Below are positions 36,786-61,216 of a stretch of DNA of 64,000 nucleotides, piece by piece. This stretch comes from Caulobacter sp. NIBR1757 (GTDB lineage Bacteria > Pseudomonadota > Alphaproteobacteria > Caulobacterales > Caulobacteraceae). Numbering within the stretch: the first letter of the stretch is position 1; each line of letters opens with the position of its first letter. The stretch lies in contig NZ_CP115463.1 in assembly GCF_027912495.1 (NCBI RefSeq), positions 3,794,501 through 3,858,500 of the forward strand, given 5' to 3'. Position numbers and translations under genes: made by a program. The notes under the pieces were generated by a model. The model was not told the origin of the DNA. It made no database searches and worked only from the letters and a program-made list of their open reading frames with translations.

Positions 36786-37532
36786 TTGACACTTTACGAC
36801 CACTTCCACGGCCTGCCGACCTGGGTCCGCTGGCTGAATGGCCTGAGTTGGGTGCTTGCCCTGTGGCTGATCTTCTGGCCCGTGCCCTACCTGCCGTTGG
36901 TGATCGTGGTCGGCTTGGCGCCGCTGGCGTTCCTGGTCGCGGCGACGTGTTGGCCGGACTGGATCGCGGTCGAGGACGGCGAGGAACTGTCCTTTGGCCG
37001 GCGATTGGGGAGGCGGCTCAACCTGACCGGGCTCTGGAGCCTTGCCGGCTTGGCGACGGGTCTGAGGGCCATCTCAGATGTCGAGCTGGTGGACTGGGGT
37101 TGGCCGCTTCTTGTCTGTCTGGGCCTGGCCTTTCCGATGACTGCCATCTGCGTGCGGGCGGAGGGGCGGCTGTTTAGTTGGGCGACGATCTGCAATGCGA
37201 TGATCGCCCTGTTCTTCAGCTGGGGCGCGGCTGTACAGGCCAACGTGCTGCTCGACCCCTCGCCGGGCAAGGTGGAGGCTGCCACAATCATCTGGCGCGA
37301 GGACCTGAACCGAAGTGGGCCGGATATCAGCCTGCGATTGGCAGACGGCGAGGAAATCGCCCACCTGGATGTCAGTTCGGCGGTCTATGAGGGGACCATC
37401 GTCGGAGGAACCGCCTGCCTGGACATCAATCCCGGCCTGTTCGGCTGGCGGACCGCCCGGATTGTCAGCTGCACGGCGCCGCTGCGCGATCTTACGCCCC
37501 CGGCACCTTCAACCCCTTCGCCGCCTCGCTGA
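36786..37532 (+). CDS. Hypothetical inner-membrane protein
   Basis: A 248-residue protein starting at TTG 36786, with GGCGGGGGG just upstream. It has about five hydrophobic segments between residues 15 and 155 (WVLALWLIFWPVPYLPLVIVV, LAFLVAATCW, LWSLAGLATGL, LLVCLGLAFPMTAI, AMIALFFSWGAAV). A soluble C-terminal part of about 90 residues follows, with ADGEEIAHLDVSSAVYEGTI. No family recognised. Its last 41 nt overlap the 3-prime end of the convergent ccmI, where the frame turns Pro/Ser-rich (PAPSTPSPPR), so the true function may end earlier. Confidence 0.65.
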   Translation: MTLYDHFHGLPTWVRWLNGLSWVLALWLIFWPVPYLPLVIVVGLAPLAFLVAATCWPDWIAVEDGEELSFGRRLGRRLNLTGLWSLAGLATGLRAISDVELVDWGWPLLVCLGLAFPMTAICVRAEGRLFSWATICNAMIALFFSWGAAVQANVLLDPSPGKVEAATIIWREDLNRSGPDISLRLADGEEIAHLDVSSAVYEGTIVGGTACLDINPGLFGWRTARIVSCTAPLRDLTPPAPSTPSPPR

Positions 37533-38673
37533 TCCTCGCCTGCTCGGCAGGCGAACCGGCGAAGGCCGCGCGGCCCTGCTTCAACGCCCGCGATGCCGCC
37601 GCTGGTTCGCCCAGAACCATCCGCGCCCGCATCAGGCGGATCCAGCCTTCGGCGTCGCGGGGCTGTTCCTGAAGACGGCCTTCGAGGCCCTCGACCATGC
37701 CGCGGATCATCTGTTGCTGGTCGTCCGGGGTCATCGTCTGCGCCGCTGCGATGTCGTCGGCGGACGGGCCGCGCGGGGCGGCGCCTCCGCTGACCGGCTT
37801 CAGCCGGCCGGTCAGGTCCACGCCCCGTTCGCGGGCCAGGTCCTCGACGAAGTTGCGGACTTCGCCCACCCAGGGGGCGCCCTCGGGAGCGGCGTTGATC
37901 AGGGCGATCCAGTCGGCCATGGCCCCGGCCTGGTCGCCGGCCTGGTCCTTCTCGACGGCCAGGAAGTAGCGGGCGCGGGGATCGTTCGGATCGAGCTTGA
38001 GGGCTTGCCGGAAGGCGGCGGAGGCGGCGGGGGTAATCTGGCCGCCGGCGGCCTGGACCAGGGACTCGCCCTGGGCCGAGCGGTGTTCGGGATTGGCGGG
38101 ATCGTTGGTCGCCGCCTTGTCGTAGGCCTCCGCCGACTCGCTGAACTGACCGGTCTGGAAGTAGGACCAGCCGAGCATGCGCCAGCCTTCGGCGTCGTTC
38201 GGATTGCGGGCGACCTGGGCCTGCAGTTGGGCGATCATGGCCGGGATGTCGCCGCCCGGATGGTCGGGCGGCGGCGCCGCCGTACCGTCGGGCGCCTTGG
38301 CGGCGGCGGCGTTGGCAGAGGCGATTTCGGGCTTGCCCATCACCGCATAGAGGCCAGTGGCCCCGATGGCGACGACGGCGGCCAGGCCGAAGGCGAGCCG
38401 CAGCAGGGACTTTTCGCTCAGGGGCCGCGCGGGGGCGTCGGGGCCCTTGGCCTCGGCCAGCATGCGGCGCTCGATCTCCAGCCTAAGCCGGGCCGCCTCG
38501 TCGGCGGTGACGGTTCCAGCGGCCGCCTGGGCGTCGAGCTCGCTGAGCTGGTCGGCGAGGATGCCGGTCGGGGTGGCGGCGGCGTCGACCGCCTTACGCG
38601 GCCGGGCCAGCGGGATGACCAGGCCGACGACAGCCAGGGCGACCAGCAGGGTGAGGACCATCCAGAGAATCAT
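37492..38673 (-). CDS. ccmI: Cytochrome c maturation protein CcmI
   Basis: A 393-residue CcmI/CycH. One N-terminal membrane helix (ILWMVLTLLVALAVVGLVI), a leucine-zipper-like cytoplasmic loop (LADQLSELDAQAAAG to LRLEIERRM), a second helix (LLRLAFGLAAVVAIGATGLYA) and a periplasmic domain with TPR repeats (about residues 150-280: DAEGWRMLGWSYFQTGQFSE, DPNDPRARYFLAVEKDQ). It chaperones apocytochrome c to the CcmFH lyase. It overlaps ccmH by 4 nt and is last in the ccmF-G-H-I operon. The many CxxCH proteins encoded downstream are its evident clients. Confidence 0.93.
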   Translation of the reverse strand: MILWMVLTLLVALAVVGLVIPLARPRKAVDAAATPTGILADQLSELDAQAAAGTVTADEAARLRLEIERRMLAEAKGPDAPARPLSEKSLLRLAFGLAAVVAIGATGLYAVMGKPEIASANAAAAKAPDGTAAPPPDHPGGDIPAMIAQLQAQVARNPNDAEGWRMLGWSYFQTGQFSESAEAYDKAATNDPANPEHRSAQGESLVQAAGGQITPAASAAFRQALKLDPNDPRARYFLAVEKDQAGDQAGAMADWIALINAAPEGAPWVGEVRNFVEDLARERGVDLTGRLKPVSGGAAPRGPSADDIAAAQTMTPDDQQQMIRGMVEGLEGRLQEQPRDAEGWIRLMRARMVLGEPAAASRALKQGRAAFAGSPAEQARISEAAKGLKVPGA

Positions 38674-39128
38674 GACGTCTCACTCAGCAGGGCTTTGAGC
38701 CGGGCCTGTTCATCCGGGTCGAGGGGGGCAGGCGCGACGACCGACCGTCCGCGCCAGTAGCGCCAGACTCCGAAGGCGCCGCCGAGCAGCAGCAGGGCCG
38801 GGCCGAACCACAGGAACAGGGTGGCGGGGTTGATCGGCGGTTTGAGCAGCACGAAGTCGCCGTAGCGCTGGACGAGATAGGCCTTGGCCTGCTCGTCGGT
38901 GTCGCCGGCCGTCAGCCGCTCGCGCAGGATGGCGCGCAGATCGGCGGCCAGGGGGGCGTCGGAGTCGTCAATGGTCTGGTTCTGGCAGACGACGCAGCGC
39001 AGTTCTTTGGACAGATGCCGGGCGCGGGCCTCGAGGACCGGATCCTTGAGCTGTTCTTCGGGCAGAACCGCGAGGGCCGGACCGGCGACGACGGTCAAGG
39101 CGAGGATAAGGGCAAGGAGCCGTTTCAT
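38670..39128 (-). CDS. ccmH: Cytochrome c maturation protein CcmH
   Basis: A 152-residue CcmH/CycL with a signal peptide (RLLALILALTVVAGPALA), the redox motif LRCVVCQNQTIDDS (RCxxC) and a C-terminal membrane helix (TLFLWFGPALLLLGGAFGVW). It reduces or holds apocytochrome cysteines for heme ligation. The start overlaps the ccmG stop and the end overlaps the ccmI start by 4 nt each. This is the short single-domain alphaproteobacterial form, with the TPR part encoded separately by ccmI. Confidence 0.94.
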   Translation of the reverse strand: MKRLLALILALTVVAGPALAVLPEEQLKDPVLEARARHLSKELRCVVCQNQTIDDSDAPLAADLRAILRERLTAGDTDEQAKAYLVQRYGDFVLLKPPINPATLFLWFGPALLLLGGAFGVWRYWRGRSVVAPAPLDPDEQARLKALLSETS

Positions 39129-39664
39129 GCTTCGGCCTCCAGCTTGTCGAGCAGGGGCTTCAGGGTGGTGGTCCAGGTTTCGGGATCGACGGGGCCGACG
39201 TGGCGGTAGCGGACCACACCCTTCTTATCGATGACGAAGGTCTCCGGCGCGCCAGTGACGCCCAGATTGATGCCGGTTCGGCCGGTCGGGTCATAGCCGA
39301 CGCGATCGTAGGGGTCGCCGAACTGGGTCAGCCAGCGGGCCCCGGCGTCGCCCTTGTCCTTCCAGTTGAGGCCGTGGATCGAGACGCCCTCGGCCTTCAG
39401 CCGCATCAGGAAGGGGTGCTCGATGCGGCAGGAGACGCACCAACTGGCGAAGACGTTGATCAGACCGGGCTTGCCCTCGAAGTCGCTGCTCGCAAGGCCG
39501 CGGCCGCCGGTTCCGGTGCGGACGTCGGGCAGGTTGAAGGCTGGCAACGGCTTGCCGATCAGCATGGAGGGCAGGATCTTCGGATCGCGGCCGAGACCGA
39601 TGGCCATGACGGCGGCGATGCCCAGGAAGACAACGACCGGGACGATGAAGGCCAGGCGCCTCAT
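39125..39664 (-). CDS. ccmG: Thiol:disulfide interchange protein CcmG/DsbE
   Basis: A 179-residue thioredoxin-fold protein with an N-terminal anchor (LAFIVPVVVFLGIAAVMAIGL) and the active-site motif FASWCVSCRIEHPFLM (WCxxC) near residue 75. PFLMRLKAEGVSIHGLNWKD and GVTGAPETFVIDKKG with the cis-Pro are also typical. It keeps heme-binding cysteines reduced in the periplasm. It overlaps ccmF and ccmH by 4 nt each. CcmA-E genes are not in the window, so they must lie elsewhere. Confidence 0.94.
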   Translation of the reverse strand: MRRLAFIVPVVVFLGIAAVMAIGLGRDPKILPSMLIGKPLPAFNLPDVRTGTGGRGLASSDFEGKPGLINVFASWCVSCRIEHPFLMRLKAEGVSIHGLNWKDKGDAGARWLTQFGDPYDRVGYDPTGRTGINLGVTGAPETFVIDKKGVVRYRHVGPVDPETWTTTLKPLLDKLEAEA

Positions 39665-41652
39665 GCGGCGGCACCGGCGGTCTTGCGGCCCGCCTTCACC
39701 CTGGAGCGTTGCGGGGCCCCGAGGCGCAGGCGGCGGTCACTGAGCGAGATCAGGCCGCCGAGCGCCATCAGGATCGAGCCGCCCCAGATCCAGCCGACGA
39801 AGGGGTGGTTCCACAGGCGGATGACGGCCTTGCCCGCCTCGTCCCGATCACCGACCGAAATGTAGAGGTTGCCGACCAGTGAGGGCCCGATGGCCGCCTC
39901 GATGGTCTGGGTCTGGCTGGAGGGATAGAAGCGGCGCTCGGAGATCAGCTGCCTCGGGCCGCGTCCGCCGATGATGCGGAAGACGCCCTGATCGGCCTGG
40001 TAGTTGGGGCCGATGACCTGGCCCAGGCTGTCGAGGATGACGGTGCGGCCGGCGAACTCGACCTGGTCGCCGGGGCCCATGCGCAGCACCTTGTTGGCTT
40101 CGAAGCCGCCCATGGCGGTGATGCCGATGCAGGTGACGCCGAGGCCTGCATGGGCCAGGGCCACGGCCCAGACGGCGACGGGGGTGGTGCGGACCAGGGT
40201 CCAACTGGCGGCGGCGGTCTTCGAACCGATCCCCCAGCGGCGGACCAGCAGCAGGCCGCCGGCGGCGATCAGCCAGACGCCGAGCGCGATGCCAAAGGCG
40301 GCCAGGGTCCTGGCCAGGCCGAAGGCGAAGGTCCCGGCGAGGAGGGCGATGACGAACAGGCCAAGCGGCCAGCGCAGGCGGATGAGGATGGCCTTCACCT
40401 GATCCCGCTTCCAGTGCAGCAGCGGGCCGAAGCCGACCAGGGTCAGCAGGATGGCGAACAGCGGCAGGAAGATCAGGTTGAAGAAGGGCGGGCCGACGGT
40501 GATCGTCGCCCCACCCGCGATCAGCGGGTAGAGCAGCGGATAGAAGGTGCCGAGGAAGACGGTGGCCGTCGCCACCACCAGCACCAGGTTGTTGAGGGTG
40601 ATCCCCGCCTCCTTGGAGATGGGGCCGAAGATGGCGCCGGTGCGCATGGCCGGGGCCCGCCAGGCGTAGAGGGCCAGGGCCCCGCCGGTGGCGGCGACGC
40701 AGAAGGCCAGGACGTAAGCGCCGCGAGCGCTGTCGACGGCGAAGGCGTGGACGCTGTTGAGGATTCCCGAGCGCACAAGGAAGGTGCCGATCAGGCTCAG
40801 GGAGAAGGTCAGAATGGAGAGCAGCAGCGTCCAGCTGATCAGGGCGCCGCGCTTTTCCAGCACCAGGGCGCTGTGCAGCAGGGCCGTGCCCATCAGCCAG
40901 GGCATCAGGGAAGCGTTCTCGACCGGATCCCAGAACCACCAGCCGCCCCAGCCGAGCTCGTAATAGGCCCAGTGACTGCCCAGCGCGATGCCGAGGGTCA
41001 GGGAGGTCCAGGCGAACAGCACCCAGGGCCTGACCCACCGGGCCCAGGCGGCGTCGACCCGGCCCTCGATCAGGGCGGCGACGGCGAAGGCGAAGGCGAC
41101 GCTGAAGCCGACATAGCCGAGGTAGAGCAACGGCGGATGGCTGATCAGCCCGGGGTCCTGCAGCAGCGGATTGAGCTCTGTCCCTTCGAGGGGCGCCGGG
41201 CTCAGGCGCGCGAAGGGATTGGAAGTGAGCAGCGAAAAGCCGAGGAAGGCGGCCCCGAGCAGCCCCTGGACGCCGAGCACGCGGGCGAGGAAGGTCGCCC
41301 GCAGGGTGCGTCCGAAGACGGCCAGCGCCCCGCCATGCAGAGCCAGGATCAGGATCCACAGCACCATCGAGCCCTCGTGGCTGCCCCAGGTGGCGGCCAG
41401 GCGGTAGGCCAGCGGCTGGGTCGTATGGCTGTGGCGGGCGACCAGCTCGACCGAGAAGTCGAGTGTCGCATAGCCCCAGGCGATGGCCGCGAAGGCAATG
41501 AGCACGAACAGCAGCTGCAGCAGGGCGGCCATTCGGCCCAGCCCCATCAGGGCGTCATCGCGCCGATGCGCCCCCCACATCGTCACGGCCGACTGCACCA
41601 GCGCCAGCGCGAAGGCGAGGATCAGGGCGAACTGGCCGATTTCGGCGCTCAT
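39661..41652 (-). CDS. ccmF: Heme lyase CcmF
   Basis: A 663-residue integral membrane protein with about 15 hydrophobic segments. It has the heme-handling WWD domain WGGWWFWDPVENASLMPW near residue 235 and flanking His regions (SLTLGIALGSHWAYYELG and ALLHSALVLEKRG). CcmF with CcmH and CcmI forms the synthetase that attaches heme to CxxCH motifs. It is the first gene of the ccmFGHI operon. The spacer of 131 nt to the divergent flavoprotein gene presumably contains promoters for both. Confidence 0.95.
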   Translation of the reverse strand: MSAEIGQFALILAFALALVQSAVTMWGAHRRDDALMGLGRMAALLQLLFVLIAFAAIAWGYATLDFSVELVARHSHTTQPLAYRLAATWGSHEGSMVLWILILALHGGALAVFGRTLRATFLARVLGVQGLLGAAFLGFSLLTSNPFARLSPAPLEGTELNPLLQDPGLISHPPLLYLGYVGFSVAFAFAVAALIEGRVDAAWARWVRPWVLFAWTSLTLGIALGSHWAYYELGWGGWWFWDPVENASLMPWLMGTALLHSALVLEKRGALISWTLLLSILTFSLSLIGTFLVRSGILNSVHAFAVDSARGAYVLAFCVAATGGALALYAWRAPAMRTGAIFGPISKEAGITLNNLVLVVATATVFLGTFYPLLYPLIAGGATITVGPPFFNLIFLPLFAILLTLVGFGPLLHWKRDQVKAILIRLRWPLGLFVIALLAGTFAFGLARTLAAFGIALGVWLIAAGGLLLVRRWGIGSKTAAASWTLVRTTPVAVWAVALAHAGLGVTCIGITAMGGFEANKVLRMGPGDQVEFAGRTVILDSLGQVIGPNYQADQGVFRIIGGRGPRQLISERRFYPSSQTQTIEAAIGPSLVGNLYISVGDRDEAGKAVIRLWNHPFVGWIWGGSILMALGGLISLSDRRLRLGAPQRSRVKAGRKTAGAAA

Positions 41653-41783: not shown

Positions 41784-44231
41784 ATGGAGGGAGTCTACAA
41801 GGTCGCCATCCTGGGCTCGGGCCCGGCCGGCCTCAGCGCCGCCGCGCGCGCCGCCCGCCGGGGGCTGACCCATGTCCTGCTGGAGAAGACCGACCGCCTC
41901 TCCGACACCATCTTCCGCTACCAGCGCGGCAAGCACATCATGGCCACCCCGACCCAGCTGGTGCTGCGCTCGGACATCGGTTTCGAGGCCGGCAAGCGCG
42001 AGACGATCCTCGACCGCTGGAACAGCGAGACGGCCGGCCACAAGGTCAACGTCGCCTATCGGGCGGAAGCAGCGTCGGTCACCGGCAGCAAGGGCGATTT
42101 CACCATCACCCTGACCGACGGCCGGGTGCTGAAGGCCGAAACGGTGGTGCTGGCCATCGGCACCCAGGGCAACCCCAACCTGATGACCGTGCCGGGCAGC
42201 GACCTGAAGCACATCCAGTACAGCCTCGATGATCCCACCGAATACGTCGACGAGCACATCGTCGTGGTCGGGGGCGGCGACGCCGGCATCGAGAACGCGC
42301 TCGGCCTGATCGCCGATGCGGCCCAGGGCAACATCGTCACCCTGCTCAACAAGTCGATGGACTTCGCCCGCGCCAAGGAAGCCAACGTCAAGGCCCTGAC
42401 CGACGCGGCGGCGGCGGGGCGGATCACCATCCTGGCCGGCTCCACGCCGGCCAGGGTCGATCCCGGCTTCATCACCATCGACACCCCGGAGGGCCAGCAG
42501 TCGATCCGCTGCGACCGGATCATCGCCCGCATGGGCTCGGCCCCGCCGCGCAGGTTCGTCGAATCGATGGGCGTCGCCTTCACCGGGCCGGACCGCGAGG
42601 CCTTCCCCAGGCTGTCGTCGACCTTCGAGACCACCGTGCCTGGCATCTATGTCATCGGCGCCCTGGCCGGCTATCCGCTGATCAAGCATTGCATGAACCA
42701 GGGCTATGACGTCATCGAGTTCATCACCGGCAACCTCGGCCTCAAGCCCGCCGACGAACCGATCCTCGAGGCCAAGCTGTCGGCCCTGCCGGGCGGCCAG
42801 TCGGTGGCCGACTGGCTGGAGTTCCTCCGCACCCGGATCGAAATCCTGAACGGCCTGTCCACCCTGCAGATGCGGGAGTTCCTGCTCGACTCCTCACTGC
42901 GGGTCTGCGCCGCCGACGAGGTCATCTTCCAGCGCAACTCGATCGGCTCCTCGATGTTCGGCATCGCCGCCGGCTCGGTGAAGGTCGAGGTCAATCCGAA
43001 GAACCGGCGCGAGACCGTTCCCATCGGCCAGGGCTCGATCTTCGGCGAGGTCGGGCTGATCTCCGGTCGCCGGCGCGGGGCGACGATCCGGGCGGCCGAA
43101 CCCTGCATCCTGCTGGAGATGCCGCGCACCGCCTCGCTGCGGCTGATGGCCCAGAACAAGGAGGCGCGGGAGACGGTCAACCGCATCACCACCGAGCGCC
43201 AGGTGCTGCAGATCTTCGGCTCGGGCCTGACCAAGGAGGACATCGCCGAGGTGCTGACCAGCGCCGAACTGATGCAGGTCAAGGCCGAGGACGCCATCAT
43301 CAACGAGGGCGAGGCCGGCTACGACATCTTCATCATCCGCTCTGGCTCGATGACCATCGAGAAGGAGATCGGCGGCAAGACGGTCTTCCTCAACTATGTG
43401 CCGGCCGGCAGCTACGTCGGCGAGATGGCGTTGATCGACGGCGGCCGCCGGGTGGCGACGGTGCGGGCGGCGATCCGCTCGGAGGTGGTGCGGCTGGACG
43501 GCGACCTGTTCCGGCGGCTGCTGGCCCGCAAGCCCGAGCTGGAAGCCAAGATGCGGGAGGACATGCGGACCCGCAAACAGATCAACAGCTACATCGAGGA
43601 ACAGAAGGACCGCTTCAGCGGCGTGGTCGATCTCTACTCCTCCGTCGCCGACTTCCTGGTCGACCAGGGCATCGGCGAGGCCACCGACGTGCTGCTGATC
43701 GATGAGACCCTCTGCGTCGGCTGCGACAATTGCGAGAAGGCCTGCGCCGACGTCCATGACGGGCTGTCGCGGCTGGACCGCGAGGCGGGCCGCACCTACG
43801 CCAACCTGCATGTGCCAACCAGCTGCCGGCACTGCGAGCACCCTTACTGCATGACCGACTGCCCCCCCAACGCCATCCGGCGCGGGGCCGACGGCGAGGT
43901 GTTCATCGACGAGACCTGCATCGGCTGCGGCAACTGCCAGCGCAACTGTCCCTACGGCGTGATCCGCATGGACAGCCCACCGCCGCAGAAGCCGGGGCTG
44001 CTCAGCTGGTTCCTGTTCGGGGCGGGACCGGGTCCCGGCGAGCCGGACCTGGAGTGGAAGACGCGGGCCAAGAAGAAGCACGGCGAAAAGCCCAAGGTCG
44101 CCATCAAGTGCGACATGTGCGCCGGCATCGACGGCGGGCCGGCCTGTGTGCGGGCCTGTCCGACCGGGGCGGCGATCCGGGTCTCGCCCGAGGACTTCCT
44201 GACCGTCACCCGCGTGCGAGGCGAGGGCTGA
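41784..44231 (+). CDS. FAD/NAD oxidoreductase - dual cyclic-nucleotide-binding - four-cluster ferredoxin fusion
   Basis: An 815-residue cytoplasmic protein with four parts. Residues 1-320 are a pyridine-nucleotide-disulfide-type oxidoreductase (GSGPAGLSAA for FAD, VVVGGGDAGIENA for NAD(P)) without a redox-active CxxC. About 355-470 and 480-600 are two cNMP-binding domains, each with an intact phosphate-binding cassette (FGEVGLISGRRRGAT and GEMALIDGGRRVAT). About 640-815 is a DmsB/NrfC-like ferredoxin with four Cys groups (CVGCDNCEKAC, CRHCEHPYCMTDC, CIGCGNCQRNC, CDMC...CVRAC), enough for four [4Fe-4S] clusters. It likely passes NAD(P)H electrons to the next gene's membrane protein, and cAMP gating is inferred from the cyclase in the same operon. 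Confidence 0.9.
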   Translation: MEGVYKVAILGSGPAGLSAAARAARRGLTHVLLEKTDRLSDTIFRYQRGKHIMATPTQLVLRSDIGFEAGKRETILDRWNSETAGHKVNVAYRAEAASVTGSKGDFTITLTDGRVLKAETVVLAIGTQGNPNLMTVPGSDLKHIQYSLDDPTEYVDEHIVVVGGGDAGIENALGLIADAAQGNIVTLLNKSMDFARAKEANVKALTDAAAAGRITILAGSTPARVDPGFITIDTPEGQQSIRCDRIIARMGSAPPRRFVESMGVAFTGPDREAFPRLSSTFETTVPGIYVIGALAGYPLIKHCMNQGYDVIEFITGNLGLKPADEPILEAKLSALPGGQSVADWLEFLRTRIEILNGLSTLQMREFLLDSSLRVCAADEVIFQRNSIGSSMFGIAAGSVKVEVNPKNRRETVPIGQGSIFGEVGLISGRRRGATIRAAEPCILLEMPRTASLRLMAQNKEARETVNRITTERQVLQIFGSGLTKEDIAEVLTSAELMQVKAEDAIINEGEAGYDIFIIRSGSMTIEKEIGGKTVFLNYVPAGSYVGEMALIDGGRRVATVRAAIRSEVVRLDGDLFRRLLARKPELEAKMREDMRTRKQINSYIEEQKDRFSGVVDLYSSVADFLVDQGIGEATDVLLIDETLCVGCDNCEKACADVHDGLSRLDREAGRTYANLHVPTSCRHCEHPYCMTDCPPNAIRRGADGEVFIDETCIGCGNCQRNCPYGVIRMDSPPPQKPGLLSWFLFGAGPGPGEPDLEWKTRAKKKHGEKPKVAIKCDMCAGIDGGPACVRACPTGAAIRVSPEDFLTVTRVRGEG

Positions 44232-45103
44232 TGGCCAGGGCGCCGCGCAAGGGACAACGATCGAACGCCCAGGTCCATGTCGGCTTCCTGCGTCACGCCG
44301 GCTATCGCTGGGCCTGGGTCGGGCTGGTGCTCTCCATCGCCGCGGCGGTCGGCTATGTGCTGGCCGACGTGCATCCCCGGCCCAACGGTGGCAGCTGGTA
44401 TGGCTACACGCTGGGGACCATCGGGGCCCTGCTGATCGTCTGGCTGACGGCGCTGGGCATTCGCAAGCGGGTGATCACCAAGGGCGACTGGTCGTTGAAG
44501 GCCTGGGTCTCGGCCCATGTCTATTTGGGCATCGCTCTGGTCGCCGTCGCCACCCTGCACAGCGGCCTGCAGTTCGGCTGGAACATCCATACGCTGGCGT
44601 ATGCTTTGATGATCCTGGTCGTGTTGTCGGGCATCTACGGCATCATCGCCTACGCCGGCCTGCCCAAGGCGCTGAGCAACAACCGGCGCGAGACCACCCA
44701 GAAGCAGATGGTCGAGACCCTCCGCAGCCTCGACCGCCAGCTCAATGAGGCGGCCCAGCCGCTGAACCAGCGCCAGGCGGCGGCGGTGCGGCTGTCGCTG
44801 GAGAAGAGCCGGGTCGGCGGCGGCTTCTTCCGCCGACTGAGCACCAACCCGATGGACTGCGGCACCCGCCGGGCTCTGAACAAGCTCAAGGGCCTGTCGC
44901 GCAAGGCGACCGAGGGCGAACAGGCCGCCATCGGCAATGTCACCGCCCTGCTGGACCGCAAGAGCGCCGCCCTGCTGCAGCTGCGCAAACATCTGCGCAT
45001 CCGCACTCTGCTGGGGGCGTGGCTGGCCATCCATGTTCCCGCCTCCATCGCCCTGCTGATGGCGCTGACCGCGCACATCGTCAGCGTCTTCATCTACTGG
45101 TGA
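44231..45103 (+). CDS. Membrane protein with b-heme-type histidines (ferric-reductase/cytochrome b-like)
   Basis: A 290-residue protein with four or five membrane helices: WAWVGLVLSIAAAVGYVLA, LGTIGALLIVWLTALGI, HVYLGIALVAVATLH, AYALMILVVLSGIYGIIAYAG, and C-terminal HVPASIALLMALTAH. His pairs spaced about 13-15 residues apart in two helices resemble di-heme b-type electron carriers. A cytoplasmic stretch of about 100 residues (AKALSNNRRETT-like to LRKHLRIR) separates the last two helices. The ATG overlaps the flavoprotein stop (TGATG), so translation is coupled. It is the natural membrane partner of the ferredoxin, handing electrons to the periplasm; heme binding is inferred. Confidence 0.8.
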   Translation: MARAPRKGQRSNAQVHVGFLRHAGYRWAWVGLVLSIAAAVGYVLADVHPRPNGGSWYGYTLGTIGALLIVWLTALGIRKRVITKGDWSLKAWVSAHVYLGIALVAVATLHSGLQFGWNIHTLAYALMILVVLSGIYGIIAYAGLPKALSNNRRETTQKQMVETLRSLDRQLNEAAQPLNQRQAAAVRLSLEKSRVGGGFFRRLSTNPMDCGTRRALNKLKGLSRKATEGEQAAIGNVTALLDRKSAALLQLRKHLRIRTLLGAWLAIHVPASIALLMALTAHIVSVFIYW

Positions 45104-49219: not shown

Positions 49220-49270
49220 CCGGAGGGCCGCGTTCGGGCCGGAGACGACAGCGCTTTGAGGGGCAAAGAC

Positions 49271-51356: not shown

Positions 51357-52073
51357 TCAACGCTCTGGCATGCTGAACATCAGGGGGATGCGAACGGTAG
51401 CGCCCCCGACGGGCTGTCCATCGGCCGTCGTCGGTCGCATGCGAAACTGGCTCGACAGGCTCTTGGCGGCCTCGCCGAAGCCCATGTCGGCGGGGCTTTC
51501 CATGACGACGTTGCAGTCCCGGAGGGTCCCGTCGGCGATGACCTGACAGGACAGAGTCACCCGCCCGCTCTGACCTGCCGCCAGCGCGGCCTTGGGATAA
51601 ACCCGGGCGACGTCGCCGCCGGTCGGCTTTCGAACCCAGTCCGGCCGTGTGACGACAGGGTTGCGCGGCGGCGCCGGCGGGGCCGGCGGCGCGATGACCG
51701 GCGGCGCGGGACTGGCCCACGGCCAGCCGAAGCTGAGGGTCAGCTCCACCTTCGCGCCCAGCTGCGCCTTGGCGTAGGTCGGCTCGATCCGGTAGCTGTC
51801 GATGAGTTTGAGCGCGGCCTGCTCGAAGCCAAGGCCGGGATGGTTCGCATATCGGATTGCGCAGTCGACGAGCCAGCCCTCCACATCGAAGCCGCAGCGA
51901 AGCGCGACCCAGGCCCTTGCGGCGACGTGAGCGGCTTCGGGAGGGGTGACGCCCTTGATCTGCTCCGGCGTCGGCTGCTGGATCAGCCGGGGAGAGAACA
52001 GGACCTTTTCCTGGGCGAACACTGGCGGCGCGGCGAGGGTGGCCAGGGCCACGAAGGGCAGAAGGTGACGCAC
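51357..52073 (-). CDS. Exported TonB C-terminal-domain protein
   Basis: A 238-residue protein with a signal peptide (HLLPFVALATLAAPPVFA) rather than a TonB-type membrane anchor. Residues 20-115 form a cysteine-containing domain of unknown type. A Pro-rich linker (PAPPVIAPPAPPAPPRNP) follows, then a TonB_C domain (VARVYPKAALAAGQSGRVTLSCQVIADGTLRDC to FRMRPTTADGQPVGG). Such stand-alone TonB-C proteins are frequent in Caulobacterales and their roles are mostly unknown. The start is GTG 52073 with GGAG 7 nt before. It lies 14 nt after the decaheme gene stop, so it is probably the last gene of that operon. Confidence 0.8.
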   Translation of the reverse strand: MRHLLPFVALATLAAPPVFAQEKVLFSPRLIQQPTPEQIKGVTPPEAAHVAARAWVALRCGFDVEGWLVDCAIRYANHPGLGFEQAALKLIDSYRIEPTYAKAQLGAKVELTLSFGWPWASPAPPVIAPPAPPAPPRNPVVTRPDWVRKPTGGDVARVYPKAALAAGQSGRVTLSCQVIADGTLRDCNVVMESPADMGFGEAAKSLSSQFRMRPTTADGQPVGGATVRIPLMFSMPER

Positions 52074-55966: not shown

Positions 55967-57910
55967 TCAGAAGGCCAGCGTCGCGTTGAGCAGGATCGAA
56001 TAGTAGCGGTCGTCGCGCTCTGAATTGGTGAACAGGTCGCCGAAACCGTCGCCCGGCTCGAACAGGGCGCCGGACGCCCGGACCACGATGTTCTGGGTCA
56101 TCCAGGGCCGCCAGACGGCCCCGACCGAGACGTCGAGGCCCAACTCCTTCGGGATCGAGCCCTCGTTGCGCAGCACCTGGACGGTGATGGTGTCGTCGAA
56201 CCACAGGTGGTTGATGTTGCCGGTCAGGCGGACCTGGGGCGTGACATCGAAATCGGCGCCCAGGCCGACCAGCATGGTCCCGGGGTTGTTGAAGTTCGAC
56301 TGCCCCTCTTCCTTCGACGAGCGCAGGGAATTGAGAATGCCGTTGCGGCCGTTGACGCCCACCGCCCGGCCGCCGCCGGCGAAGGGGATCGACTGGCGGA
56401 TCCAGTAGCTGGTGTCGGCCCCGGCGAACTGCGGGTTCTCGAAGATGGCGTCGAAGCCCTTCTCGACGTTGTCGTAGGGGTCGTCGTCGCCCGAGGCGTA
56501 GAGGAAGGAGCCGCGCAGCCGCACCCAGTCGAAGTCGATCGAGGGTTCGAGGGCGGCGAACCAGGCGCGGATGTCGGCCGGCTTGCTGGTGAAGATCGAA
56601 TTGCGGTCCTCGCCGACCGCCCCGTAGAGGCTGCCGGACAGGTTCAGCCGGCCAATCCGTCCGTCTGCGGAGTATCCCAGGTAGAGGACGTCGTAGTCGC
56701 GGGGGCGCAGGTTGCCGATCAGGGCCGGGCGGACCGGAAAGCCGTTGTCGTCGACCTGGATGTCGTCGGCCTCGTCGTTGCGGTTGTAGACGGCGGTGAC
56801 CTGCGAGGTCATGCCGGGGACCGGGAAATCCTGGCGATAGAGGTTGGCGACGAACAGCTGGTCGTCGCGCAGGTTCTGGGTGACGTCGTTGAGGCCGCTG
56901 TTGGTGTCCTTCTCGACCCGCCAGAAGAAGGCCAGGTTGTACTGCCAGCGATTGTTGTCGCGGTTGCCGAACAGGCGGACGCCCAGCTGGTTGTCCTGGA
57001 ACAAGAAGCCCCGGAAGTCGGCGTTGAACGGCTGGATACCGACCCGTATGGAATCGAAGTCGTAGCGGTCGGAGACGTTGCGCAGGTGGTAGTCTACGAA
57101 GGCTTCCTGAATCCCGACGAACCAGTCCTCGCGCTCGGTGTCGCGGCTGGGCTTGACCGACAGGATGCGGCGCTCGGAGATGTCGGCGTAATTATAGTTG
57201 AAGGCCAGGGTGACCCGGGCCTCGAAGTCCGGCGGCTTGAAGGCGGTCGAGCCCTCGATGAAGGCGAGGCCGGCGATGAAGGTCTGGGAGGCGACCAGGC
57301 TGTCGGCGCGGCCGAAGACGTCGTTGCTGCCCGAGCCGGAGGTGGTCTGCACGCCGACGGGGACCGGGAAGCTGCGCGGCTCGATGACTGTGTCCATGAC
57401 GCCGGTGAAGACCAGGAAGCGGTCCTCGGTGCCGGGGATCGGCCGGTCGCCCTTGAAGCTGTTCTGGTTGTAGGGATCGAACCAGTTGTCCCGGACCCCG
57501 AACTGGTCGGCCAGGCGCCAGCGGTCGGGGATGGGGAAATGGTCGGTCGGGAAGGCTTCCGGCGGCGGGGCGTTCACCGCGCCGGGGTTCTCCTGCGGAT
57601 CGCGGTCGGGATAGGTCTCGACGCGGCCCGGGCGGCGGCGCCAGGGCAGCCATTCGACTATCGAGTCCTCGGGCGCCGGTGCGGCGGCCGGGGCATTGAG
57701 CCCCAGGTCGGGCGGCGGCGGCGCAGGCGCGCGGCCCAGGATCCTGCCGGTGGGTGTCGGCTCGGAATCGTCGGGCTGTTCGGCGGCCTGCTGCCGCGCC
57801 GCCTCGACGGCCTGGTCGATCGCCGAGCCCTCCGCCGCCCAGGCGCCACCGGCCAGCAGCGCGGCGATGGCCACGCTCCCCAGCAGCAGGACGGGGCGGA
57901 CGGCGATCAT
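55967..57910 (-). CDS. Outer-membrane beta-barrel protein (porin-cytochrome partner type)
   Basis: A 647-residue protein with a signal peptide (VLLLGSVAIAALLAGGAWA), a Pro/Ala-rich 80-residue periplasmic N-terminus and then alternating amphipathic strands rich in aromatic residues (FEARVTLAFNYNYADISER, YDFDSIRVGIQPFNADFRGF, WQYNLAFFWRVEK). It ends with LLNATLAF, the terminal Phe typical of BAM substrates. Length allows roughly 20-26 strands. The layout resembles DUF1302/MtrB-like barrels, and its place between two cytochrome genes suggests it holds a cytochrome across the outer membrane. The start is ATG 57910, 1 nt after the lipoprotein stop. Confidence 0.85.
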   Translation of the reverse strand: MIAVRPVLLLGSVAIAALLAGGAWAAEGSAIDQAVEAARQQAAEQPDDSEPTPTGRILGRAPAPPPPDLGLNAPAAAPAPEDSIVEWLPWRRRPGRVETYPDRDPQENPGAVNAPPPEAFPTDHFPIPDRWRLADQFGVRDNWFDPYNQNSFKGDRPIPGTEDRFLVFTGVMDTVIEPRSFPVPVGVQTTSGSGSNDVFGRADSLVASQTFIAGLAFIEGSTAFKPPDFEARVTLAFNYNYADISERRILSVKPSRDTEREDWFVGIQEAFVDYHLRNVSDRYDFDSIRVGIQPFNADFRGFLFQDNQLGVRLFGNRDNNRWQYNLAFFWRVEKDTNSGLNDVTQNLRDDQLFVANLYRQDFPVPGMTSQVTAVYNRNDEADDIQVDDNGFPVRPALIGNLRPRDYDVLYLGYSADGRIGRLNLSGSLYGAVGEDRNSIFTSKPADIRAWFAALEPSIDFDWVRLRGSFLYASGDDDPYDNVEKGFDAIFENPQFAGADTSYWIRQSIPFAGGGRAVGVNGRNGILNSLRSSKEEGQSNFNNPGTMLVGLGADFDVTPQVRLTGNINHLWFDDTITVQVLRNEGSIPKELGLDVSVGAVWRPWMTQNIVVRASGALFEPGDGFGDLFTNSERDDRYYSILLNATLAF

Positions 57911-57911
57911 C

Positions 57912-59894
57912 TCAGATCCCCGAGCAGACGTTGGAAGCGCCGCTGTCGATGTAGGGCGCGAAGGGGCAGTTGACGTAGCGCAGCCGTGTCGAGGTCGCGC
58001 CCTGGACGACGACGACGGTGTCGGAGCGGATGGAGGCGGCCGGATGGGCGATGGTCCCGCCGGCATTGAACAGGCCGAGGGCGCTGATCATGTCGTCCTG
58101 GTCGATGCCGTCGCCGGAGACGCCGATGGCGCCGACCAGCTGGCTGCCCCGATAGATGGGCGCGCCGCCGGGGAATATCTGCAGGCCGTTCTGCAGCCGG
58201 TTCTGGCCGGGCCGGGCGTCGGGCAGGGCCGTGCAGCGGGCCGGGGTGTCGGCCCCGCCGCCGTTCACGAAGGTCAGGTGCTGGCCGAGGTTGCCGAGCA
58301 CCAGGGCCGATTGCAGGCCGGTCGAGAAGGGGCTCCAGTCGGCGATCGACCGCGACAGCGGGCCGGGCGGCCGGCCGACCTCGCCGTCCGGGAAGTAGGG
58401 CCGGTGCAGGTTGCCGATGGCCCGGACCGAGACGCCGATGGTTCCGGTCAGGGCGTCGGGGCGGGACAGGAAGGTGCGGGTGGCCGGGACGAAGGCGCGG
58501 ACATCGGCGCTGGGATCGGCCGACAGGTCGGCGCCGGCCGCGGGATGGCTCATGAAGGCGGCCGAGCGGGCCTTCTGCAGCGAGACATCGATGCCGAACA
58601 CCGGGGCGTCGGGCGAGCGGACGATGCCGAGGATGTCGCCATGGGTGTCGACCACCGAGATGGTCACCTGGGCGCGGCTGTCGAGCGGCCGCCGGATCTG
58701 GGCCCGGGCGTGACGCATGACCGCGAAGGCCTGCTCCAGCAGGCTACGCGCCTCGGCGGCGGTCAGCGGGGTGGCGACACTGCCGCCGTCGGCCCCGGCG
58801 GCCGGCGGGTAGCGATTGCCCCCCGCGCCGTTGGTCAGGACGAAGGCGTCCGGGTCGGCGAATTCGGCATCGGCGGCGTCGCGCACGCCGGAGCCCTCGG
58901 TCCCGAAGGTCTGGCCGGCGATGGCCGGGCCGGCGGCGTAGCCGGTGACCGCCACCAGGGCCCCCGTGCCGACCGGCAGGCTGGCGAAAGCCGGCGCGCT
59001 GGCCGGGGTGCTCATCAGGTCGGAGATCGTGGCGTCGCTGAAGCGCAGCGAGGTCCCATCGACGGTGATGCGGTCGGCCTTGATCTCGGCGGCGGCGTCG
59101 AGGCCGCTCATGGCGGCCAGGGCGATGATCTCTTCCAGGTCCTTGTCGACGTCGATGACGTTGGCGTCGAAACCGTAGTCGCCTTCGGCGATGACGCCGA
59201 CGCCGCCGACCAGCACCCCGCCCTTGTAGAGCGGAAAGCCGCCCGGATCGGCGGCCAGGCCGAGCGGCGAGCGCTTGGGACCCAGGAAGGCCGTGGCCCC
59301 GCCGCCGGCCGCATACCGTCGGTTCAAATCCGAACAGGGCAGCTGGCTGAACTGCACCCCGAACAGCGGACCGCTCTCCAGCCCGACCGCGCCGGGGGCC
59401 GGCGGGAAGTGCTGCTGGACGATCATGCTGGCCGTGCGGCTGGAGAAGGCGTTGCCAGCCGAGGAGAGGTAGGCGCCGGTCACCGCCTTGGCGATGGCGC
59501 CCGCCTCGGCCGGGGCGACGACGCCCTGGATGTCGCGGTTGGTCCCCGGCCCCGGGCGGATGGTGATGGTCGCCGGGGCGCCGGTCATCCGGTAGACGGC
59601 CAGAACGTTGCCGACCCGGTCGGTGACCGCGATCACCGCCGGCCGGCCGCGGGCCCGCGCCTCAGCCACGGCCCGGGCGAGGACGCCTTCGACATCGGCG
59701 ACGCTGAGCGCGGCCAGGCCCAGAGCCGGATAGACGGGCGTCGATCCACCGCCGCCGCCGCCGCCTCCACCGCCGCCACCTCCCCCACCGCCGCCGCCGC
59801 CTCCCCCACCGCCGCCGGAGCAACCGGCGACGACCAGCGAGGCCGCGACGATGACGCTGGTGACGGCGCGGCCCAGGAGGGAAGCCCGGATCAT
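57912..59894 (-). CDS. Tandem GlcG/HbpS-domain lipoprotein with 24-Gly tract
   Basis: A 660-residue lipoprotein. The lipobox LVVAGC is followed by Ser and 24 consecutive Gly, a flexible tether. Two GlcG/HbpS domains follow: the first has VSDVEGVLARAV-like helices and GGFPLYKGGVLVGGVGV, the second GGAPIYRGSQLVGAIGVSGDGIDQDDM, the family hallmark, each with an upstream AVTDRVGNVLAVYR or SVVDTHGDILGIVR strand pair. HbpS relatives bind heme or protect against peroxide. It lies in an operon with cytochrome genes, so a heme or redox role at the membrane surface is plausible. It overlaps the pentaheme gene by 4 nt and ends 1 nt before the barrel gene. Confidence 0.88.
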   Translation of the reverse strand: MIRASLLGRAVTSVIVAASLVVAGCSGGGGGGGGGGGGGGGGGGGGGGGGSTPVYPALGLAALSVADVEGVLARAVAEARARGRPAVIAVTDRVGNVLAVYRMTGAPATITIRPGPGTNRDIQGVVAPAEAGAIAKAVTGAYLSSAGNAFSSRTASMIVQQHFPPAPGAVGLESGPLFGVQFSQLPCSDLNRRYAAGGGATAFLGPKRSPLGLAADPGGFPLYKGGVLVGGVGVIAEGDYGFDANVIDVDKDLEEIIALAAMSGLDAAAEIKADRITVDGTSLRFSDATISDLMSTPASAPAFASLPVGTGALVAVTGYAAGPAIAGQTFGTEGSGVRDAADAEFADPDAFVLTNGAGGNRYPPAAGADGGSVATPLTAAEARSLLEQAFAVMRHARAQIRRPLDSRAQVTISVVDTHGDILGIVRSPDAPVFGIDVSLQKARSAAFMSHPAAGADLSADPSADVRAFVPATRTFLSRPDALTGTIGVSVRAIGNLHRPYFPDGEVGRPPGPLSRSIADWSPFSTGLQSALVLGNLGQHLTFVNGGGADTPARCTALPDARPGQNRLQNGLQIFPGGAPIYRGSQLVGAIGVSGDGIDQDDMISALGLFNAGGTIAHPAASIRSDTVVVVQGATSTRLRYVNCPFAPYIDSGASNVCSGI

Positions 59895-61216
59895 GTGACG
59901 CGCTCCAGGGCGGCCCGCACCCGGCCGAGGGCGGCGCGGAAGTCGCCCGGTCGATAGGCGTTGGGGTCTCTGACGGCGGCGTAGGCCGCCTCGATGTCGC
60001 GACGCATGCCGCCAGCCGCGCCGCCGCCGACGGCGCCCTGGCTGACGGCGGCGGTCAGCAGGGTGTCGACGGCCATCACCGCCTGGGCCCCGCCGCTGTA
60101 GTCGGTGTAGCGGACGGTCAGGGCGTCGCCGAGCACCAGCCGCAGGATGGCGACGGTGTCCCGGTCGCTGAAGCCGCGCCCGGCGAAGCGGTTGCCCAGC
60201 TGGGCCGTGGTGGCGCCCAGCCGCCTGGCGGCGGCCAGCATGCCGGCCCGGTCGCCGCCCATGGCCTGGTGGAAGGCCCGGGAGTCGGCCGCGAACCGCT
60301 GGGCCAGGTCCGGCGCGGCGATCTTCGCCGCCGCCGTCAGCAGGATCATGTTCTCGTCGTTGTAGGGCGGCGCGCCCCAGACGATCGGCCGCCCGGGATT
60401 GGCCCCGAACCGCACCGGCGGGTTCGCCTCGTCGCTGATCGCCCGGTGACAGCTGTGGCAGTCGAAGAAGTAGAATTCCGGGAAGACCCCCTCGCTGCCC
60501 TTCGACGAGGTGAACAGGGTCAGGGAACGCTCGAGCGCCAGGGCCTGGCCGACAGCCCAGCTGGTGACGCCGCTGACCGAGCGCTTGCGGGCGTGGTTCT
60601 GATAGCTGTTGAACAGGTCCAGCTCGAAGCTCATGCGGGGATGGCCGGCGGCCATCATCCGGTGGCTGACGAACTGCCCCGGCTTGTCGCTGCCGAAGTG
60701 GCAGTCGAGGCAGGTACCCGCGAGAACCCGGGGGTCTTCCAGCGCCCGCATGCCGCGGGCCCGGTTGTCGGCGCGGCTGGCCCCGACCGTGTAGTGGCTG
60801 GCCAGCCAGCCCTCCGACCCGCCGTGGCAGGATTCGCAGCCGACGCCGTCGGAGACCTGGAAAGTCGGGCCGCGACGGGCGGCGTTGTCGGTGTGGCAGC
60901 CGAGGCAGGCCGGGGCCCTGGACGCTTCGCCCATGCCGAGACGGTCGGCGATCTTCTGGGCCCAGGGGGTCTGCAGGCTGCGCCAGGCCTTCGAATGGGC
61001 GCCGGCGGCGCTGGTGTAATCCTGCCAGACGACCAACTCGTTCTGGCGCACCACGGCGCCGTCGCCGGCCCCGCGTCCGTGGCAGGTCGAGCCGGCGCAG
61101 CTGCCGACGCCGTTGTGCACGGCCTGCGAGGAGGCCGGGACGGCGAACAGCAGGGCGAGGACGAGACTCGCCCACGCCACGACGGCATTGACCTTGCCCG
61201 CGAGCAGACGCTCCAC
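59891..61216 (-). CDS. Periplasmic pentaheme cytochrome c (c554-like)
   Basis: A 441-residue exported cytochrome. A signal peptide (VVAWASLVLALLFAVPASSQA) is followed by an atypical CAGSTCH (CX4CH) site near residue 40, then CLGCH, CESCH, CLDCH and CHSCH. The first site sits in a block like those of c554-type multiheme proteins (GSCAGSTCHGRG...NELVVWQDYTSAAGAHSKAW). The last 170 residues lack heme motifs and are helical. It is the first gene of the four-gene cytochrome/barrel operon and overlaps the next by ATGA. It is the probable periplasmic entry point of the conduit. Confidence 0.9.
   Translation of the reverse strand: MERLLAGKVNAVVAWASLVLALLFAVPASSQAVHNGVGSCAGSTCHGRGAGDGAVVRQNELVVWQDYTSAAGAHSKAWRSLQTPWAQKIADRLGMGEASRAPACLGCHTDNAARRGPTFQVSDGVGCESCHGGSEGWLASHYTVGASRADNRARGMRALEDPRVLAGTCLDCHFGSDKPGQFVSHRMMAAGHPRMSFELDLFNSYQNHARKRSVSGVTSWAVGQALALERSLTLFTSSKGSEGVFPEFYFFDCHSCHRAISDEANPPVRFGANPGRPIVWGAPPYNDENMILLTAAAKIAAPDLAQRFAADSRAFHQAMGGDRAGMLAAARRLGATTAQLGNRFAGRGFSDRDTVAILRLVLGDALTVRYTDYSGGAQAVMAVDTLLTAAVSQGAVGGGAAGGMRRDIEAAYAAVRDPNAYRPGDFRAALGRVRAALERVT

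What the first reader, a model, noticed from the sequence alone, without database searches (positions are those of the whole stretch)
37492..61216. Candidate cAMP-gated electron-transfer supercluster
Four adjoining units appear to form one system: ccmFGHI for heme attachment; a flavoprotein/ferredoxin with two cNMP-binding domains plus a b-type-like membrane protein and an FHA-anchored decaheme; a CHASE2 cyclase with a CpdA phosphodiesterase; and an outer-membrane barrel with pentaheme and decaheme cytochromes. About 25 c-type heme sites are encoded in three genes. The pieces offer a path from NAD(P)H to the outer membrane and its own second-messenger control. Domain content is read from sequence; the electron path and gating are inference. 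Porin-cytochrome conduits are known from Shewanella and Geobacter, but I know of none described with this control module.
Basis: partly seen in the sequence, partly recalled or inferred. Interest (0 to 1): 0.87.

Follow-up and report, generated by a model that had tools for sequence, protein, structure and literature searches.

The report
cAMP-linked electron conduit of Alphaproteobacteria
A Caulobacter genome carries a gene set, found together in many related bacteria, that looks built to carry electrons from the cell's NAD(P)H out to the cell surface, with what appears to be a cyclic-AMP switch built into its first protein.

Summary
The units encode a second ccmFGHI set; an FAD/NAD(P)–tandem cNMP–16-Cys Fe-S protein; a di-heme-b-type membrane protein; an FHA-anchored decaheme; a CHASE2 class III cyclase; a metallophosphoesterase; and an outer-membrane block of pentaheme, barrel and LVIVD decaheme (25 heme c sites).

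In overlapping samples of 200 (order), 240 (class) and 299 (phylum) genomes, 34 hold both flavoprotein and LVIVD decaheme, 9 the flavoprotein only, none the LVIVD only. They lie within 20 kb in 27 of 29 genomes with both on one contig.

Both cyclic-nucleotide pockets and all 16 cysteines are kept in 110 of 110 full-length flavoproteins. A cyclase lies within 15 kb in 9 of 20 chosen genomes (0.65 expected).

Best reading: one trans-envelope electron line from NAD(P)H to the surface that skips quinones, probably gated by cAMP at its entry. Path and gating are inferred. The barrel matches no MtrB-type family. Eight literature searches found no description. New variant of porin-cytochrome electron export.

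The parts
37492..38673 (-). ccmI (TPR, heme-lyase accessory)
   Evidence: TIGR03142 1.2e-18
38670..39128 (-). ccmH
   Evidence: PF03918 4.7e-51
39125..39664 (-). ccmG/dsbE
   Evidence: TIGR00385 1.3e-50, above cut-off
39661..41652 (-). ccmF/nrfE heme lyase, one of two copies in this genome (other copy 49% identical)
   Evidence: TIGR00353 above cut-off; own-genome search
41784..44231 (+). YpdA-like FAD/NAD(P) flavoprotein + two cNMP-binding domains + HycB-like Fe-S domain (16 Cys; four [4Fe-4S] clusters inferred)
44231..45103 (+). membrane protein with two His pairs 14 residues apart (di-heme b type inferred); start overlaps the flavoprotein stop
45111..46958 (+). FHA domain - hydrophobic segment - decaheme cytochrome c (periplasmic placement inferred)
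46955..49219 (+). CHASE2 - class III nucleotidyl cyclase; start overlaps the FHA-cytochrome stop
49256..50140 (+). metallophosphoesterase (CpdA/SpdA-like)
51357..52073 (-). TonB_C-domain protein after the LVIVD gene; among the fetched relatives detected only in L064
52088..55966 (-). decaheme cytochrome with C-terminal LVIVD repeats
55967..57910 (-). outer-membrane barrel (647 aa; signal-like N-terminus, terminal F; barrel fold inferred)
57912..59894 (-).
   Evidence: PF03928 1.4e-23, 3 stretches
59891..61216 (-). cytochrome c554-like pentaheme (4 CXXCH + C-X4-CH)
33906..35360 (+). aldehyde dehydrogenase; orthologues 75-89% identical lie near the core in 18 of 80 named loci (possible reductant supply, uncertain)

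Best explanation
One trans-envelope electron-transfer system. The cytoplasmic flavoprotein oxidises NAD(P)H through FAD and passes electrons along four [4Fe-4S] clusters to the di-heme-b membrane protein. That protein hands them across the inner membrane to the FHA-anchored periplasmic decaheme. The pentaheme and barrel carry them through the outer membrane to the LVIVD decaheme, which reduces an extracellular acceptor not identified here; the HbpS lipoprotein probably helps with that acceptor or with heme. This route bypasses the quinone pool. The two cNMP domains sit between the flavin and Fe-S domains, so cAMP made and destroyed by the neighbouring cyclase and phosphoesterase probably switches the first step. 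Shown: gene content, conserved cofactor and ligand residues, co-inheritance, gene order, fusion. Inferred: electron path, direction, acceptor, nucleotide identity, gating.
For: Co-inheritance: order sample, flavoprotein (E<=1e-60) in 18 of 200 and LVIVD decaheme (E<=1e-30) in the same 18; class, 20 and 15 of 240, the 15 all within the 20; phylum, 9 and 5 of 299, the 5 within the 9. Within 20 kb in 27 of 29 genomes with both on one contig. In 80 named loci the membrane protein is beside the flavoprotein in 77, the FHA decaheme in 74 (the misses are all at locus ends), the phosphoesterase in 65. One same-strand run flavoprotein-membrane-FHA decaheme-HbpS-barrel-LVIVD in 8 of the 10 LVIVD-bearing class genomes fetched, and up to the barrel in the non-alphaproteobacterial G574. 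Flavoprotein and membrane protein are one chain (1123 and 1118 aa) in G573 and G463. 16 of 16 Fe-S cysteines and both Gly-Glu...Arg cNMP pockets in 110 of 110 full-length homologues. Ten hemes in 95 of 98 FHA cytochromes and 39 of 41 LVIVD cytochromes; 4 CXXCH + C-X4-CH in 15 of 15 pentahemes (36; full-length hits only). Cyclase within 15 kb in 9 of 20 genomes, 0.65 expected, P about 1e-9 without correction for kinship. Both metal Asp and the Lys of class III adenylate cyclases in the window and 13 of 13 full-length homologues. NADP-specific glutamate dehydrogenase in 24 of 80 named loci (one partial) and, as another subfamily, inside the operon in 4 genomes of family f5.
Against: No structure could be predicted, so the barrel's size and any cytochrome inside it are untested. 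NAD(P)H use, direction and acceptor are unknown. The core occurs without barrel or LVIVD in G251, G259, G303, G437, G463 and G573, and G318 has the flavoprotein alone in the 34 kb fetched. In G376 the flavoprotein sits between the LVIVD decaheme and a c554-like gene with no membrane protein or FHA decaheme on that 10 kb contig. The blocks are far apart in G025 and G631. The cyclase is not within 15 kb in 11 of 20 genomes and the phosphoesterase is undetected at 1e-10 in 7 of 20. The FHA Ser of the SxxH motif is not conserved, so phosphothreonine reading is doubtful. No CRP-like site lies in the intergenic promoters.
Confidence: 0.62

Rival explanations
1. The wire is real but the cNMP domains do not gate it: they are structural or bind another ligand, and the cyclase and phosphoesterase act elsewhere (for example through a CRP regulator).
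For: 11 of 20 genomes have no cyclase match within 15 kb; 7 of 20 lack the phosphoesterase at 1e-10. Nucleotide binding is untested.
Against: Both pockets keep Gly-Glu and Arg in 110 of 110 full-length homologues; cyclase and phosphoesterase recur near the core in different arrangements and share its operon here.
Confidence: 0.22
2. Two separable modules: the core is a general NAD(P)H-to-periplasmic-cytochrome reductase that can feed several partners, and the barrel block is only one partner.
For: Core with another neighbour set in G259 and G303 (c554-like protein, pentaheme of 604/641 aa, 535/538 aa protein); core without barrel in G437, G463, G573; blocks far apart in G025 and G631.
Against: The LVIVD decaheme was not found without the flavoprotein in any of the 34 genomes that have it, and is within 20 kb of it in 27 of 29 with both on one contig.
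Confidence: 0.3
3. Inward flow: electrons from an external donor enter through the LVIVD decaheme and reduce NAD(P)+.
For: Porin-cytochrome systems can run inward (recalled, PioABC).
Against: Recurrent NADP-glutamate dehydrogenase, ThDP-enzyme and aldehyde dehydrogenase neighbours suit NAD(P)H supply better; flow from hemes c to NAD(P)+ without an energy input is uphill (general knowledge).
Confidence: 0.08
4. A dedicated surface enzyme rather than mineral respiration: the LVIVD decaheme and HbpS lipoprotein reduce one soluble compound (for example a heme, metal chelate or xenobiotic).
For: HbpS is in the block of 10 of 10 genomes and of 9 of the 10 LVIVD-bearing genomes (in the tenth, G376, the contig starts inside the barrel gene); hosts include soil sphingomonads and Sphingobium megaplasmids.
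Against: No catalytic heme or substrate site was identified; the LVIVD decaheme reaches no curated cut-off of a known reductase and no solved structure at E 0.1.
Confidence: 0.3

Closest known systems
Porin-cytochrome conduits (MtrCAB, PioAB, Geobacter Omb/Oma/Omc, ExtABCD; names recalled)
   Same: Outer-membrane barrel encoded with a smaller multiheme and a large decaheme, and a periplasmic decaheme feeding them. The FHA decaheme passes the Pfam cut-off for MtrC/MtrF-like domains II/IV (33.7 of 30 bits), and its profile touches chain 6r2q_A at E 1.9e-4 (labelled cystathionine beta-synthase there; that 6r2q is MtrCAB is recalled).
   Different: Barrel matches no MtrB/PioB family or solved barrel; the surface cytochrome carries LVIVD repeats and stays under the MtrC/F cut-off (20.2 of 30); extra HbpS lipoprotein; the input is a NAD(P)H-type flavoprotein, not a quinol dehydrogenase.
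HycB-like 4x[4Fe-4S] subunits, YpdA flavoproteins and cNMP-binding regulatory subunits
   Same: Best solved matches: formate hydrogenlyase subunit 2 (9.8e-22), YpdA/Bdr 7a7b (1.2e-19), a PKA regulatory subunit 6rsx (1.4e-17).
   Different: Here the three are one chain next to a di-heme-b-type membrane protein and a decaheme.
Geobacter ExtM/N/O cytochromes (selenite/tellurite operon)
   Same: Local similarity around two hemes of the LVIVD decaheme (ExtM 65.4 bits).
   Different: Far below the curated cut-off of 800 bits.
Shewanella cAMP control of respiration (CRP, CpdA)
   Same: cAMP and a phosphodiesterase linked to respiration (PMC8458880: title, start of abstract and term counts in the listing only; CpdA is recalled).
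   Different: There control is transcriptional (recalled); here the nucleotide pockets are inside the redox enzyme.

Membership tests
Porin-cytochrome conduit (MtrCAB type) | Barrel-type protein and multiheme cytochromes in one operon | tested here: met
   barrel fold itself inferred
Porin-cytochrome conduit (MtrCAB type) | Barrel homologous to MtrB/PioB | tested here: not met
   Among the 10 Pfam families matched by any of 38 members at E<=1 none is MtrB/PioB; 5 of 38 touch Alginate_exp, best 2.1e-4; only a chance low-complexity match in the PDB profile search
Porin-cytochrome conduit (MtrCAB type) | Cytochromes with MtrC/MtrF-like heme domains | tested here: inconclusive
   FHA decaheme 33.7 bits, above the cut-off of 30; LVIVD decaheme 20.2 and pentaheme 19.1, below it
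Porin-cytochrome conduit (MtrCAB type) | Cytochrome sheathed inside the barrel | not testable with these tools
   Structure prediction switched off
Cytochrome b561 / ferric-reductase-like di-heme b proteins | Two transmembrane His pairs about 14 residues apart | tested here: met
   H96/H110 in 100 of 100; H268/H282 in 99 of 100, one gap; meaning of the pattern recalled
Cytochrome b561 / ferric-reductase-like di-heme b proteins | Window protein above the Pfam gathering cut-off | tested here: not met
   Ferric_reduct 15.3 of 28, b561 14.3 of 30.1 bits; b561 matches 52 of 53 members at E<=1, best 9.2e-10
Cyclic-nucleotide-binding domains | Phosphate-binding cassette Gly-Glu...Arg | tested here: met
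   Both domains, 110 of 110 full-length homologues
Cyclic-nucleotide-binding domains | Binds cAMP or cGMP | not testable with these tools
   Needs a binding assay
Class III adenylate cyclase | Two metal Asp and adenine-type Lys | tested here: met
   D497, D541, K537 in the window and 13 of 13 full-length homologues; residue meaning recalled
Class III adenylate cyclase | Makes cAMP | not testable with these tools
   Needs enzyme assay
CpdA / SpdA cyclic-nucleotide phosphodiesterase | Metallophosphoesterase motifs | tested here: met
   D-x-H, GD, GNHD, HH and GHxH in 49 of 49 full-length homologues
CpdA / SpdA cyclic-nucleotide phosphodiesterase | NCBIfam equivalog cut-off | tested here: not met
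   SpdA 140.2 of 400 bits; CpdA 77 of 225
ExtM (selenite/tellurite operon) | NCBIfam cut-off 800 bits | tested here: not met
   65.4 bits
FHA phosphothreonine-binding domain | GR, Ser and His of the binding loop | tested here: inconclusive
   GR 98 of 98, His 92 of 98, Ser not conserved

The most novel reading that the evidence does not exclude
An outward electron conduit that draws straight from NAD(P)H, skips the quinone pool, and is switched on or off at the enzyme level by cAMP made and degraded by genes in its own operon, so that Alphaproteobacteria not known as electrogens can vent reductant to the surface on a second-messenger signal.
Probability: 0.4. Interest if true: 0.88.

Novelty: new variant of a known kind. 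Interest (0 to 1): 0.73.

Why it matters
Known electron-export systems are fed by quinols and regulated by transcription (recalled). A widespread conduit fed from NAD(P)H and carrying cyclic-nucleotide pockets in its first enzyme would add a new entry point and a new control mode. It would also suggest extracellular electron export in genera not usually tested for it (recalled); Caulobacter, Phenylobacterium, Brevundimonas, Sphingobium, Sphingomonas and Novosphingobium are among the 80 named loci. In the one plasmid record whose annotation I opened, the genes bear generic names such as 'hypothetical protein', 'heme-binding protein' and 'cyclic nucleotide-binding domain-containing protein'.

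Tried and rejected
FNR/FixK box: 16 matches with up to 2 mismatches in the window against 5.0 expected (0 of 100 shuffles reached 16). Of the 8 between 42468 and 55999, 7 lie inside genes; the only 1-mismatch site (51038-51051) lies between the two operons and in no obvious promoter of them. The excess was not pursued. CRP box: 6 matches, 11.5 expected, none in the intergenic promoters. Rfam: nothing at gathering score in 30000-64000. Barrel strand count by an amphipathicity profile gave 13 to 26 depending on threshold and is not used. ORF 35397-37532 (+) was rejected as a gene because it lies opposite a Rieske ring-hydroxylase (35535-36809, -).

The idea that the recurrent GDH, ThDP enzyme and ALDH form a glutamate-to-succinate route that makes NADPH was considered. 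The ThDP enzyme fits NCBIfam acetolactate synthase PRK08322 (897.9 bits, cut-off 509) and the ALDH stays below every cut-off of the 25 families shown, so it is kept only as a lead. PMC10418658 (passages only) describes a cyanobacterial bypass of that kind.

The similarity of the FHA domain to GarA/OdhI was noted but is probably just generic FHA likeness.

Literature: of ten searches, eight sought this system or its kind, one Shewanella cAMP control (64) and one the 2-oxoglutarate route (66). No listed title or abstract start describes this gene set; most listed papers were not opened. The library is open-licence PMC only. Passages, not whole papers, were seen of PMC10418658, PMC13322032, PMC12225005 and PMC9226611, and the abstract and outline of PMC9765408; none describes the set in what I saw.

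The flavoprotein tree is the quick one; the careful search did not finish. Distance correlations between components (0.64 to 0.96) have no housekeeping control and are not used as evidence.
Full report
What is there. The window is part of a complete 4.47 Mb genome. Its closest relative found is a Caulobacter MAG, flavoprotein 96% identical. Three tight gene runs are present (coordinates). Leftward from a 131-base divergent region (41653-41783): ccmF, ccmG, ccmH and ccmI, each overlapping the next. Rightward: flavoprotein, membrane protein, FHA decaheme, CHASE2 cyclase and phosphoesterase; the first two overlap at 44231 and the FHA decaheme and cyclase overlap by 4 bases, so the cyclase belongs to the redox operon. 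Facing it on the minus strand: pentaheme, HbpS lipoprotein, barrel, LVIVD decaheme and a TonB_C protein, with gaps of 14 bases or less. Heme motifs number 10, 10 and 4 CXXCH plus one C-X4-CH, 25 in all. The ccmF here is one of two in the genome; the other is 49% identical.

Is it one system? In the order sample the flavoprotein (E<=1e-60) and the LVIVD decaheme (E<=1e-30) occur in the same 18 of 200 genomes. In the class sample the flavoprotein is in 20 of 240 and the LVIVD decaheme in 15, all among the 20. In the phylum sample the numbers are 9 and 5 of 299, again nested. The samples overlap. Taken together, 34 distinct genomes have both, 9 have only the flavoprotein, and none has only the LVIVD decaheme at these thresholds. 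Of the 9, G224 has HbpS at a contig end and G574, outside the class, has HbpS and barrel near a contig end; the other seven (G251, G259, G303, G318, G437, G463, G573) have no barrel by profile search. From the printed coordinates, 29 of the 34 have both on one contig and 27 of those have them within 20 kb; G025 and G631 have them far apart; in five genomes (G122, G169, G177, G189, G206) they fall on different contigs. Genomes are related, so the Fisher values (5e-26, 6e-20, 7e-9) overstate the evidence. In the order sample the 18 genomes fall in 11 of 41 genera. Presence is patchy: 1 of the 15 genomes shown from the window's own genus has it.

Anatomy across relatives. The membrane protein is beside the flavoprotein in 77 and the FHA decaheme in 74; the 3 and 6 misses are loci that end just there. 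The phosphoesterase is in 65, the LVIVD decaheme in 33, the barrel in 26, ccmF in 23, a cyclase match in 19, HbpS in 17 and the pentaheme in 4. Flanks end at 10 kb or at contig ends, so misses do not mean absence. I fetched neighbourhoods of 10 of the 18 order genomes and 15 of the 20 class genomes. In 8 distant Alphaproteobacteria flavoprotein, membrane protein, FHA decaheme, HbpS, barrel and LVIVD lie in one same-strand run (G228, G291, G320, G324, G355, G358, G397, G427). In four genomes of another family of the order (G005, G045, G104, G134) the pentaheme joins that run. G376 is an exception: there the flavoprotein is followed by a c554-like gene, with no membrane protein or FHA decaheme on its 10 kb contig. 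In G463 and G573 the flavoprotein and membrane protein are a single chain of 1118 and 1123 residues, which favours electron transfer between them. G259 and G303 keep the core but have a c554-like cytochrome, a different pentaheme and a 535/538-residue protein nearby, so the outer half can apparently be swapped.

Cofactors. In 110 full-length flavoprotein homologues (of 112 loci hit) the 16 cysteines of the Fe-S domain, the glycines of the FAD-type GxGxxG, and the Gly-Glu and Arg of both cNMP pockets are invariant. Some genomes are counted twice there through two collections. The Fe-S domain is nearest to formate hydrogenlyase subunit 2 and the flavin domain to YpdA/Bdr among solved structures. 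In the membrane protein H96, H110 and H120 are in 100 of 100, and H268 and H282 in 99 of 100 with one gap; two pairs 14 residues apart is the pattern of di-heme b proteins (recalled). The cytochrome b561 profile matches 52 of 53 members at E<=1, best 9.2e-10. Ten hemes are kept in 95 of 98 full-length FHA cytochromes and 39 of 41 LVIVD cytochromes, and the odd C-X4-CH in 15 of 15 pentahemes.

Second messenger. The cyclase keeps D497, D541 and K537; the residue seven before the catalytic Asn is Ser, or Thr in some relatives, which I recall as the class IIIb adenylate-cyclase pattern. In 20 genomes that I chose from those with the flavoprotein, a match to the cyclase lies within 15 kb of it in 9 (G000, G022, G025, G040, G045, G081, G104, G168, G198), against 0.65 expected from match number and genome size, P about 1e-9 without correction for kinship. 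In the other 11 it does not; in G343, G631 and G005 the nearest match is 18 to 24 kb away. In a Phenylobacterium locus the cyclase is a different CHASE2 protein (Pfam CHASE2 1.7e-24), so a CHASE2 cyclase has been kept or recruited in more than one form. The phosphoesterase was found in 13 of the same 20 genomes and lies within 10 kb of the flavoprotein in 9 of those 13.

Reductant supply, a lead not in the original finding. NADP-specific glutamate dehydrogenase lies in 24 of the 80 named loci, one copy partial, and in several of the numbered genomes (name). Two subfamilies about 54% identical are involved, and the arrangements differ: minus strand after the FHA decaheme in Phenylobacterium and Brevundimonas, upstream in Sphingomonadales, inside the operon between pentaheme and HbpS in G005, G045, G104 and G134, next to the pentaheme of the separate outer block in G631. 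Many loci are closely related, so 24 of 80 is not 24 independent events. A ThDP enzyme and an aldehyde dehydrogenase accompany the core in 18 of 80 loci each; the window has only the aldehyde dehydrogenase (33906-35360) and neither of the others. This fits an NADP(H)-linked input but does not prove it.

History. In a quick tree the eight Caulobacteraceae flavoproteins sit inside the Sphingomonadales, while the seven rows of families f4 and f5 of the window's order lie outside; family f3 and G198 are not in the tree. Twelve Sphingobium plasmid records carry both markers, and a thirteenth record (Sphingopyxis) the LVIVD decaheme. Horizontal spread is likely; the tree is provisional.

How it most likely works. 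NAD(P)H to FAD to four Fe-S clusters to two hemes b to ten periplasmic hemes to pentaheme and barrel to ten surface hemes. Outward flow is more likely than inward because hemes c lie well above NAD(P)H in potential (general knowledge). The quinone pool is not needed on paper, which would set this apart from CymA- or CbcL-fed systems (recalled). cAMP gating is the bold part: pockets kept in every homologue examined, between the flavin and Fe-S domains, with cyclase and phosphoesterase in the operon, argue for it; direct proof is missing.

What it is not. The barrel is not recognisably MtrB/PioB. The FHA decaheme does pass the Pfam cut-off for MtrC/MtrF-like heme domains (33.7 of 30 bits), while the LVIVD decaheme and pentaheme do not. 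The LVIVD decaheme is not ExtM by the curated cut-off and matches no solved structure at E 0.1. Membership in MtrCAB is therefore not claimed; the likeness in layout is. Eight searches of an open-licence library for this system or its kind listed no account of the gene set.

Noticed in passing
L050:13763-15367; also L048, L052, L054: NADP-specific glutamate dehydrogenase of a separate subfamily with an N-terminal extension sits inside the redox operon between pentaheme and HbpS genes.
   Followed up: partly
L222:1-10662 (Sphingobium herbicidovorans plasmid pMSHV): A CHASE2 protein, a ShlB/FhaC-type two-partner secretion gene and a 2092-residue protein with no Pfam match at 0.01 lie directly upstream of the pentaheme gene.
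   Followed up: no
L180:14425-19165 and L181:1377-6309: An alternative gene set beside the same core: c554-like protein, another pentaheme (604/641 aa) and a 535/538-residue protein without Pfam match.
   Followed up: partly
window 35535-36809 (-): Rieske ring-hydroxylating oxygenase alpha subunit between the aldehyde dehydrogenase and ccmI.
   Followed up: no
window, both strands: FNR/FixK-like boxes (up to 2 mismatches) number 16 against 5 expected from shuffles; of the 8 within this region 7 lie inside genes.
   Followed up: no
G437:C17:52544-54940 (L214): A second flavoprotein copy near a 1092-residue cyclase-like protein; no membrane protein or FHA decaheme was detected beside it.
   Followed up: no
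Sphingomonadales loci about 1 kb upstream of the flavoprotein (for example L101, L117, L123); L222:27206-28177: A lone divergent TPR/CcmI-like gene stands where the ccmFGHI set is in Caulobacteraceae.
   Followed up: partly
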